A program made the position numbers and the translations under genes. A stretch of 42,252 nt of DNA from Bacillota bacterium. Its GTDB lineage: Bacteria; Bacillota; DTU030. Under the pieces are notes generated by a model. It was not told the origin of the DNA and made no database searches. It worked only from the letters and a program-made list of their open reading frames with translations. The stretch spans positions 1 through 42,252 of the forward strand of contig JAAYSG010000015.1 in NCBI GenBank assembly GCA_012518435.1. The letters are read 5' to 3'. This document shows positions 17,903 to 24,613 of this stretch, piece by piece. How positions within the stretch are numbered: position 1 is the first letter of the stretch; every line of letters starts with the position of its first letter.

Positions 17903-17930
17903 CTGGGCTGGGAAGGGGTATAATGGATGG

Positions 17931-18500
17931 AGATGGATGATATTGGTTAATTATTCAAATTTAGAGGTCGGGGAACACCCCCTTACAGCCGGAGACAAGG
18001 ACGAATGAGCTCCGGCTCCTTCGGGCAGGGACAGAACTCACCCCTTCGGGGTTCAAACATGCTGTCCCTGACTTCCCCCTTCGGCGCCTCCGCTCTTTGA
18101 TTCAATGTCTCAAGGCTGTTTTGGGTGTGTTCCCACGACTCCCTTTTGAGTAAGTAGGGGATAATTTCCAGTGCAGGGCTAATACCAAGATGCGGTTTCC
18201 ATGGGGAGTGGCATATCTGGTGAAGCGATATTTCGAGGGGCGGCTAAGGGAACTTGCGACGGTTCCGCGGAACGGCGGGGCGGAAGACATGGACGTCTGA
18301 AGCCGCCCCCGGGGCATGGACGCCCCGTGGGCGGGGACCCCGCCGTTCAAGGAACCGGAGCGTTAGTTCCCTCCGCCCGGAGAATTTAGCGCGCAACCAG
18401 ATATGCCCTACCCAGTATGTATGTGGCTCTTTGGGAGTGTTACCCCGGTAAGCCAGTGGTAAATATAGGGGCGGAAATCTTCGTCTCATCGGGAGGAATT
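17931..18500 (+). ncRNA. Candidate structured non-coding RNA / long 5' leader of rsmA; strongest fold at 18238-18378
   Basis: TATAAT at 17919-17924 just after a terminator; no convincing ORF; stem-loops 17987-18017 and 18026-18070; nested stem system 18238-18378 (see findings). Boundaries and strand are inferred. Confidence 0.45.
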
Positions 18501-18503
18501 GTT

Positions 18504-19376
18504 ATGGATGGCCCGCAGTTGACATCACCCCGGCTGGTGAGGGAGATATTGCAAAGGCACAAGCTGGTCCCCAACAAAGGGCTGGGGCAGAATTTTTTGA
18601 TCGATAAAAACATCTTGGCCAAGATAATAGCCGCGGTGAAGATAAAACCTGAGGATACCATTTTGGAGGTCGGGCCGGGCCTGGGGGTCCTGACGAGTCC
18701 CTTGGCAGCCCGGGCGGGGCGGGTGGTGGCCGTGGAAGTGGACAAGGGTCTCATCCCCCCTTTAAGGGAAAACCTAGGGGCCTACCCCAATGTAAAAATA
18801 GTCCAAGGGGATATTTTAAAAATATCCTTGGCGAGTTTGGTGGAGGATATTAATACCCCCCTCAAGGTGGTGGCCAACTTGCCCTATTACATTACCTCGG
18901 CGGTAATAATGACCCTTCTCACCGGCCCCCTAAATTTGCAGTGTATGGTCTTGATGGTGCAGCGGGAGGTGGCCCAAAGGCTCTTGGCGGTGCCCGGTAC
19001 CAAGGATTACGGTATCCTCACCGCCGCCGTGGGTTATTACACAGTGCCGGAAATAATTGCCCCTGTCCCCAGGACGGTTTTTTATCCCAGTCCCGCCGTG
19101 GATTCAGCCGTGGTACGCCTGCGGGTGCGGGAATCCCCTCCGGTGGAGGTGGAGGATGAGGGGCTCTTCTTTCGTCTTATTCGGGGTGCCTTCGGCCAAA
19201 GGCGCAAGACCCTTTTAAACAGCCTGGGGGGGGAATTTAAGGGAGAGTACACCAGGGAGGAACTTGCCCGGTTTTTATTAGAGGCACAAATTGGGAAAAA
19301 ACGACGGGGTGAGACCTTAAATTTAGAGGAATTTGCCCGTTTGGAAAGAATTATTAAAAATAGGGGTAAAAAATAG
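18504..19376 (+). CDS. rsmA: 16S rRNA dimethyladenosine transferase
   Basis: NKGLGQNFLIDKNILAKIIAAV...ILEVGPGLGVLTSPLA...VVANLPYYITSAVIMTLL; ATG 18504 with GGGAGG RBS (track start 18417 is too far upstream). Confidence 0.97.
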   Translation: MDGPQLTSPRLVREILQRHKLVPNKGLGQNFLIDKNILAKIIAAVKIKPEDTILEVGPGLGVLTSPLAARAGRVVAVEVDKGLIPPLRENLGAYPNVKIVQGDILKISLASLVEDINTPLKVVANLPYYITSAVIMTLLTGPLNLQCMVLMVQREVAQRLLAVPGTKDYGILTAAVGYYTVPEIIAPVPRTVFYPSPAVDSAVVRLRVRESPPVEVEDEGLFFRLIRGAFGQRRKTLLNSLGGEFKGEYTREELARFLLEAQIGKKRRGETLNLEEFARLERIIKNRGKK

Positions 19377-19952: not shown

Positions 19953-19980
19953 ATTAGGCAATATAGGAAATCTTTTTCCC

Positions 19981-20212
19981 ATGCAGGGGAGCAGTACCTG
20001 GTTCAACCCCTAGAAGAGAGCCGGTGGCAGGTGAAAACCGGTAGGGGAAGCAGGGAATCCGCCCCGAAGGAAGTCCCGCCGAAACAAAGTAAGTGGGACC
20101 GGCCCAGCCCGTTATAGCTGTTGAGGGGATCATGATCTGTCATGATCAACCTGGGTGGCACCGCGGGAAAACTCCCGTCCCATGTTTGGGGCGAGGGTTT
20201 TTTGTTTTTTTA
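19981..20212 (+). ncRNA. T-box leader with probable TCC (Ser) specifier, upstream of aminotransferase-serA
   Basis: AGAAGAGAGCCGG stem I motif; GAA-TCC-GCCCCGAA specifier-loop context (TCC 20058-20060); T-box CTGGGTGGCACCGCGG (~20151-20166); terminator CTCCCGTCCC-ATGTTT-GGGGCGAGGG-TTTTTT. Confidence 0.92.
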
Positions 20213-22417: not shown

Positions 22418-22453
22418 CCCCTAATTGCCATCCCCGGGGGTGGCAATTAGGGG
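22418..22453. repeat. Near-perfect 36-bp palindrome (hairpin), no U-tract
   Basis: CCCCTAATTGCCATCCCC|GGGGGTGGCAATTAGGGG, one T/G wobble position. Confidence 0.85.
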
Positions 22454-22467
22454 ATGGGGAGGAACCT

Positions 22468-22491
22468 TGCCCACCTTTACCAAGGTGGGCA
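22468..22491. repeat. Second perfect 10-bp hairpin
   Basis: TGCCCACCTT-TACC-AAGGTGGGCA. Confidence 0.85.
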
Positions 22492-22505
22492 TTGTGGTAT
22501 ATCCG

Positions 22506-22514
22506 TGCTATAAT
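22506..22514 (+). promoter_or_regulatory. Extended -10 (TGCTATAAT) upstream of Fe-ADH gene
   Basis: TGCTATAAT just after the two hairpins; no clear -35. Confidence 0.5.
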
Positions 22515-22569
22515 TGTTTTAGGCAAATATTGTCAGGGGATATAATTATAAAAAAAGGGGGCTGTAAAT

Positions 22570-24419: not shown

Positions 24420-24479
24420 CATTGTCTTCCGGCCCCTTTGGGTATATAATTACCTTAGGGAAATTGTAATAATATTTGC

Positions 24480-24613
24480 TGGGGGAGCCCGTGGGCCCGG
24501 GCTGAGAGGGTGGTGTGGAAGCCGCCAACCCCTGAACCTGACCTGGGTAATGCCAGCGGAGGGAAGCGTACACGTATGACCGGGACAGGGGATGGGTTTC
24601 CCTGTCCTTTTTT
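24480..24613 (+). ncRNA. TPP (THI-box) riboswitch with terminator, upstream of thiE
   Basis: GGGGGAGCCC...GGCTGAGAGGG...ACCCCTGAACCTGACCTGGGTAATGCCAGCGGAGGGAAGCG; terminator GGACAGGG-GATGGGTTT-CCCTGTCC-TTTTTT (24583-24613). Confidence 0.97.

What the first reader, a model, noticed from the sequence alone, without database searches (positions are those of the whole stretch)
18238..18378. Nested structured-RNA candidate upstream of rsmA with two apical hairpins sharing an ATGGAC loop
Pairings read directly: outer stem GGGCGG(18238-18243)/CCGCCC(18373-18378); AGGGAACT(18247-18254)/AGTTCCCT(18365-18372); CGGTTCC(18260-18266)/GGAACCG(18351-18357); GAACGGCGGGG(18270-18280)/CCCCGCCGTTC(18338-18348). 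Inside are two hairpins with the same hexaloop closed by C-G: AGAC-ATGGAC-GTCT (18285-18298) and CGGGGC-ATGGAC-GCCCCG (18310-18327). CGCCC/GGGCG (18304-18308/18329-18333) can extend the second. The coaxial stems and repeated loop suggest a functional RNA such as a riboregulator, protein-binding RNA or element-derived RNA. I could not match it to a class. HEARO/omega-RNA, raiA and OLE-type large RNAs are only ideas to test; no IscB/TnpB or OapA-like gene is adjacent.
Basis: partly seen in the sequence, partly recalled or inferred. Interest (0 to 1): 0.75.

Follow-up and report, generated by a model that had tools for sequence, protein, structure and literature searches.

The report
Dispersed TwoAYGGAY (CsrA-sponge-like) RNA repeat
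The folded RNA upstream of rsmA is a divergent member of a known but unexplained RNA family (TwoAYGGAY, grouped by Rfam with the CsrA-sponge RNA CsrB), and here and in related bacteria it sits inside a repeat that has spread around the genome like a small transposon.

Summary
Window 18205-18412 folds at -131.7 kcal/mol (z -10.2), and its two ATGGAC-loop hairpins are the only such hairpins in the window. It is not an unclassified RNA. Rfam RF01731 (TwoAYGGAY) matches end to end (40.3 bits, E 7e-5; gathering 43). Rfam puts that family in the same clan as CsrB, and a 2014 paper proposed that TwoAYGGAY RNAs bind CsrA. Hairpin 1 reads ACAUGGACGU, the CsrA consensus pattern, and the genome has a fliW-csrA operon. 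47 of 50 genomes with the RNA have csrA, against 247 of 349 without it.

What looks new: the element is a dispersed inverted repeat, not a fixed rsmA leader. It has several copies in this genome and its relatives, is absent from one orthologous site in the sister species, and lies in the opposite orientation near this gap there. Its stems covary (21 pairs changed on both sides; 0 of 1000 shuffles). In two distant lineages related elements are inserted at intrinsic terminators, with the whole terminator duplicated, and one empty site keeps a single terminator.

Best reading: a mobile, MITE-like carrier of a CsrA-binding hairpin pair. CsrA binding and transcription are untested.

The parts
18208..18409 (+). 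Whole dispersed inverted-repeat element (about 200 nt)
   Evidence: Copies in the same genome start and stop near these positions (G000:C76 83%, G000:C73 80%). Fold -131.7 kcal/mol, z -10.2 over 18205-18412.
18210..18221 (+). Left terminal inverted repeat, GGCATATCTGGT
   Evidence: 12 bp perfectly complementary to 18396-18407. Six of the 12 pairs show two-sided compensatory changes among the family copies.
18396..18407 (+). Right terminal inverted repeat, ACCAGATATGCC
   Evidence: Partner of 18210-18221.
18231..18385 (+). TwoAYGGAY RNA core (RF01731, clan CL00106)
   Evidence: cmscan: model positions 1-168 of 168, 40.3 bits, E 7.2e-5 in an 801-base search; gathering score 43.
18285..18298 (+). 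Hairpin 1, AGAC-ATGGAC-GTCT; loop context ACAUGGACGU fits the CsrA consensus ACANGGANGU (consensus from general knowledge)
   Evidence: Sequence and fold. The 18285/18298 pair switches A-T/G-C among the 10 copies. GGA kept in all copies; one loop base is deleted in the G002 and G004 copies.
18310..18327 (+). Hairpin 2, CGGGGC-ATGGAC-GCCCCG
   Evidence: Sequence and fold. Compensatory G-C/A-T change at 18314/18323 in 4 of 10 copies.
18303..18334 (+). Stem CCGCCC/GGGCGG below hairpin 2
   Evidence: Fold. Changes to CCGCCA/TGGCGG in G002; not kept in this form in the G004 copies.
18504..19376 (+). rsmA/ksgA, 16S rRNA dimethyltransferase: the downstream neighbour, not part of the element
   Evidence: NCBIfam TIGR00755, 257 bits, cut-off 171.

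Best explanation
Window 18208-18409 is a dispersed, MITE-like inverted-repeat element whose core is a TwoAYGGAY RNA. When its + strand is transcribed, most simply within the leader of the rsmA transcript, the long stem presents two hairpins whose A-N-GGA loops, about 27 nt apart, would be gripped by one CsrA dimer. Each transcribed copy would then titrate CsrA (a sponge of the CsrB kind) or tether CsrA to the mRNA that carries it. Shown here: fold, covariation, family membership at a sub-threshold score, dispersal, presence and absence between species, and csrA in the genome. Inferred: that it is transcribed, that CsrA binds it, and that a transposase supplied in trans moved it.
For: Rfam full-length match. 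TwoAYGGAY shares clan CL00106 with E. coli CsrB. The CsrA-binding prediction for this family is published (PMC4333381). Covariation in ten family copies: 21 pairs changed on both sides, 37 cells; shuffle means 9.9 and 12.8, 0/1000 shuffles reach them. csrA in a flgL-fliW-csrA context in this genome. csrA in 47/50 genomes with TwoAYGGAY versus 247/349 without (p 2e-4); by family 24/24 versus 81/118 (p 3e-4). Two or more GGA-loop hairpins on the RNA strand in 62/83 copies and on the complement in 0/83. Dispersal: copies at unrelated loci. Empty orthologous site in G001. Opposite orientation in the sister species. Terminator-duplicating insertions of related elements, with an empty site.
Against: The Rfam score is below gathering (40.3 versus 43). 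No sigma-70-type promoter was found upstream on the + strand, though TATAAT near 17917 recurs in G001. No csrA was found in the sister genomes G001-G004, whose copies still keep GGA loops; at least G002 is probably an assembly gap, since its fliW runs off a contig end. Wobble asymmetry, which would mark selection on one RNA strand, is absent in the core stems (83 GU versus 89 AC). No target-site duplication was found at the window copy or its relatives, apart from a tandem repeat at one of them. The csrA association is not corrected for phylogeny or motility.
Confidence: 0.6

Rival explanations
1. A DNA-level palindromic repeat only (MITE-like). The long hairpin is what an unseen transposase or the replication machinery recognises, arms stay complementary through template switching, and the RNA has no cellular role.
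For: Inverted-repeat ends, dispersal and empty sites. No GU-over-AC bias in the core stems. Both strands fold equally well. Copies lie in either orientation to their neighbours. Tandem deletion derivatives with only the ends left.
Against: Both apical loops keep an A-(N)GGA core on one strand while their stems covary, including copies found by BLAST rather than by the RNA model. The loops match a known protein's consensus, and the family co-occurs with that protein.
Confidence: 0.25
2. A cis-regulatory leader of rsmA (attenuator or riboswitch).
For: It lies about 95 nt upstream of rsmA on the same strand; Rfam labels the family 'Cis-reg'.
Against: Copies stand next to unrelated genes in all orientations. 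In the sister species the copy after the same upstream gene is reversed and about 88 nt from the upstream stop instead of 333 nt. No terminator follows it before rsmA.
Confidence: 0.05
3. An RNA that binds another protein or ligand through the two loops, not CsrA.
For: Copies keep GGA loops in G001 and G004, where no csrA was found; no binding has been shown for any member.
Against: Loop consensus, Rfam clan placement and csrA co-occurrence.
Confidence: 0.1

Closest known systems
TwoAYGGAY RNA (Rfam RF01731; PMC2864571)
   Same: Full-length covariance-model match, same two AYGGAY hexaloops, same nested stem.
   Different: Sub-gathering score. The element here is longer, with 12-bp terminal inverted repeats outside the Rfam model, and is dispersed in the genome. 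I found no published description of the family as a mobile repeat.
CsrB/RsmB family (RF00018, clan CL00106)
   Same: Same Rfam clan; GGA-loop hairpins proposed to bind CsrA in pairs.
   Different: CsrB is one 360-nt sRNA with many sites. This is a two-site, about 200-nt palindromic element in several dispersed copies.
Bacterial MITEs (pneumococcal repeats, MITEAba12; PMC3049150, PMC6382973)
   Same: Short, non-coding, inverted-repeat ends, multi-copy, present or absent between species.
   Different: Conserved paired GGA loops. In two related lineages the insertions duplicate a whole intrinsic terminator. No transposase identified.

Membership tests
TwoAYGGAY RNA (RF01731) | Score at or above the family's gathering threshold (43 bits) | tested here: not met
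   40.3 bits, but full length (1-168) with E 7.2e-5; other family copies 38.9 and 34.8. Homologous by structure and loops, but formally below the curated cut-off.
TwoAYGGAY RNA (RF01731) | Two adjacent hairpins with AYGGAY terminal loops | tested here: met
   ATGGAC at 18289-18294 and 18316-18321, the only such hairpins in the window.
TwoAYGGAY RNA (RF01731) | Enclosing long stem with covariation | tested here: met
   21 pairs with two-sided changes in ten copies, 0/1000 shuffles.
CsrA-sequestering sRNA (CsrB/RsmZ kind) | GGA in hairpin loops, in pairs | tested here: met
   Both loops ATGGAC; hairpin 1 fits ACANGGANGU.
CsrA-sequestering sRNA (CsrB/RsmZ kind) | CsrA encoded in the same genome | tested here: met
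   G000:C46, TIGR00202 86.6 bits, cut-off 70.1.
CsrA-sequestering sRNA (CsrB/RsmZ kind) | Expressed, and binds and titrates CsrA | not testable with these tools
   No RNA-seq or binding assay available.
MITE | Terminal inverted repeats and multiple dispersed copies without coding capacity | tested here: met
MITE | Presence/absence at orthologous sites | tested here: met
   The G000:C76 array is absent from the continuous G001:C48 locus. G042 filled versus G117 empty for a related element.
MITE | Target-site duplication | tested here: inconclusive
   None at the window family, apart from a tandem repeat at G000:C76. Whole-terminator duplication in G042 (5/6) and G124 (3/4; 16/20 of elements chosen by their ends).
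MITE | An autonomous partner with matching ends | not tested
HEARO / omega-RNA / raiA / OLE | Match to the Rfam model | tested here: not met
   No match at gathering or relaxed threshold.

The most novel reading that the evidence does not exclude
TwoAYGGAY RNAs are the conserved core of a family of non-autonomous mobile elements in Bacillota that spread ready-made pairs of CsrA-binding hairpins through genomes. In some lineages they insert at intrinsic terminators and duplicate the whole terminator, so the gene upstream is not harmed while the load of CsrA sites rises: mobile CsrA sponges.
Probability: 0.35. Interest if true: 0.8.

Novelty: new variant of a known kind. Interest (0 to 1): 0.58.

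Why it matters
TwoAYGGAY has been an orphan motif since 2010, with a CsrA-sponge prediction from 2014 for which I found no test. Showing that it is a dispersed mobile repeat, up to dozens of copies per genome, changes how it should be annotated and tested. According to the 2014 paper, CsrA-antagonising RNAs had been identified only in Gammaproteobacteria; a mobile source of such sites in Bacillota would give a concrete route by which a global regulator's target set is rewired. An insertion that duplicates a complete terminator hairpin is itself an unusual target choice with an obvious benefit.

Tried and rejected
Default Rfam scan: found only a T-box and a TPP riboswitch, not this element. 'Loops decay where CsrA is lost': G001-G004 show no csrA and looser loops, but G002's fliW hit is cut by a contig end, so the absences cannot be trusted and the idea was dropped. 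Strand test by GU versus AC mismatches: no clear bias (core 83 versus 89, outer 96 versus 61). Target-site duplications at the window family: none, except a tandem-repeat effect in C76. Attenuator reading of the G042 and G124 flanks: rejected once the full duplicated terminators and an empty site with a single terminator were seen. cis-regulation of rsmA: rejected. Literature on terminator-targeting MITEs and on CsrA with MITEs returned nothing matching.

Full report
CHECK. The 161-nt segment folds at -101.3 kcal/mol (z -7.9, 0/200 shuffles). It is the most stable segment of that length in the window, and its two ATGGAC hairpins are the only AYGGAY-hexaloop hairpins with 4 or more base pairs on either strand of 42 kb. 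The complementary strand folds nearly as well, as expected for an imperfect palindrome.

IDENTITY. A default Rfam scan misses it. With relaxed thresholds, RF01731 TwoAYGGAY matches from end to end (model 1-168) at 40.3 bits, E 7.2e-5, against a gathering score of 43. TwoAYGGAY was listed in 2010 as a probable RNA from human-gut, gammaproteobacterial and Clostridiales sequences, not cis-regulatory (PMC2864571). [quoted passage not shown] Rfam now keeps it in clan CL00106; scanning E. coli csrB shows CsrB in the same clan. The window's loops fit: hairpin 1 reads ACAUGGACGU, matching the ACANGGANGU consensus (consensus from general knowledge).

DISPERSAL. In the window's own genome (1.7 Mb, 107 contigs) there are further copies at C76 (83%) and C73 (80%) and partial copies at C62 and C76. 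Relatives G001, G002 and G004 have more, up to 12 matches in G004. The copies share their ends and differ outside. At C76 the copy sits in a tandem array of end-only remnants, and the orthologous region of sister species G001 is continuous without it (81% and 79% identical flanks, 16 nt or less between them). G001 also has a copy after the same upstream gene as in the window, but in reverse orientation, about 88 nt rather than 333 nt from the stop; the contig ends before rsmA, so adjacency there is inferred. So this is not a conserved rsmA leader.

COVARIATION. In ten copies from four genomes (alignment corrected by hand in loop 1), 21 of 64 pairs show changes on both sides (37 cells), against shuffle means of 9.9 and 12.8, reached in 0/1000 shuffles; sliding the partners drops pairing from 88% to 32-46%. 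Compensatory changes include the basal pair of hairpin 1, a pair in hairpin 2 and the terminal repeats. The GGA of both loops is retained throughout. GU versus AC mismatches show no clear strand preference in the core stems, so selection on RNA rather than on a DNA hairpin is not proven. GGA loops do mark one strand: 62 of 83 copies have two or more GGA-loop hairpins on the RNA strand and none has two on the complement (partly by construction, as most copies were found with the RNA model).

CSRA. The genome encodes CsrA in a flgL-fliW-csrA context (gene names for flgL from the sequence, fliW). Among 399 genomes of the phylum, 50 have TwoAYGGAY; 47 of these have csrA, against 247 of the other 349 (Fisher p 2e-4). 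By family it is 24/24 versus 81/118 (p 3e-4; the total number of families was taken as 142). Neither test corrects for phylogeny or motility. All four sister genomes lack a detectable csrA and three of them a detectable fliW; G002's fliW is cut by a contig end, so these absences are unreliable.

MOBILITY IN RELATED LINEAGES. TwoAYGGAY is high-copy elsewhere: 29 matches in G056, 27 in G039, and dozens of DNA matches in G117. Most copies have long inverted repeats outside the Rfam model. In G042 and G124 the element ends in CAGNNTGTNGACAAA repeats (102 such ends in G124, 1 in the reversed control). Locus-specific hairpins, many followed by T-runs, are duplicated on both sides: 5/6 copies in G042, 3/4 in G124, 16/20 in a set of G124 elements chosen by their ends, and 0 of the cross-pairings in each of these sets. 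In G117 only 2 of 20 copies pass the same cut-off, one of them a perfect 26-bp duplication. In the clearest case G042 reads AGGGCCGTTTTTACGGCCCT-CAG...CTG-AGGGCCGTTTTTACGGCCCT, while G117 has a single AGGGCCGTTTTCCGGCCCT at the matching place and no element. This shows insertion with terminator duplication for that lineage. Those copies score 50-74 bits as TwoAYGGAY and carry AGGA or AYGGAY-type loops such as ACAGGACGU. The window family shows no such duplication; its transposition mechanism is unknown.

MECHANISM. Best reading (0.6): a MITE-like repeat whose transcribed + strand displays two CsrA sites on a rigid stem, titrating or tethering CsrA. Shown: structure, family, dispersal, presence/absence, csrA present. 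Inferred: transcription, CsrA binding, transposition in trans. Main rival (0.25): a purely DNA-level palindrome.

Noticed in passing
window 17966-18142: A second, unrelated dispersed palindromic repeat in the same intergenic gap (fold -89.1 kcal/mol, z -7.2), with copies in G000, G001, G002, G004 and G010. No Rfam match.
   Followed up: partly
G124 contigs (L283-L302): About 50 elements bounded by CAGNNTGTNGACAAA ends, including deletion derivatives of 57-115 bp, sit between duplicated hairpin terminators that differ at every locus. A terminator-targeting mobile element with no transposase identified.
   Followed up: partly
L196:5330-5760 (G000:C76): Tandem array of TwoAYGGAY-element remnants: several units keep only the inverted-repeat ends (CCATATCTGGTgagcaaaACCAGATATGCC) with a repeated spacer.
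   Followed up: no
window 19972-20185: T-box leader (RF00230, 127.7 bits) ahead of an aminotransferase-like ORF.
   Followed up: no
window 24471-24581: TPP riboswitch (RF00059, 69.2 bits).
   Followed up: no
window 22441-22536: ARAGORN reports a tRNA with an undetermined four-base anticodon (tacc), probably spurious.
   Followed up: no
L239, L240, L242 (G235): TwoAYGGAY elements nested inside another inverted repeat, GAGTCACGGGGACGGTTCTnCTGACTCA.
   Followed up: no
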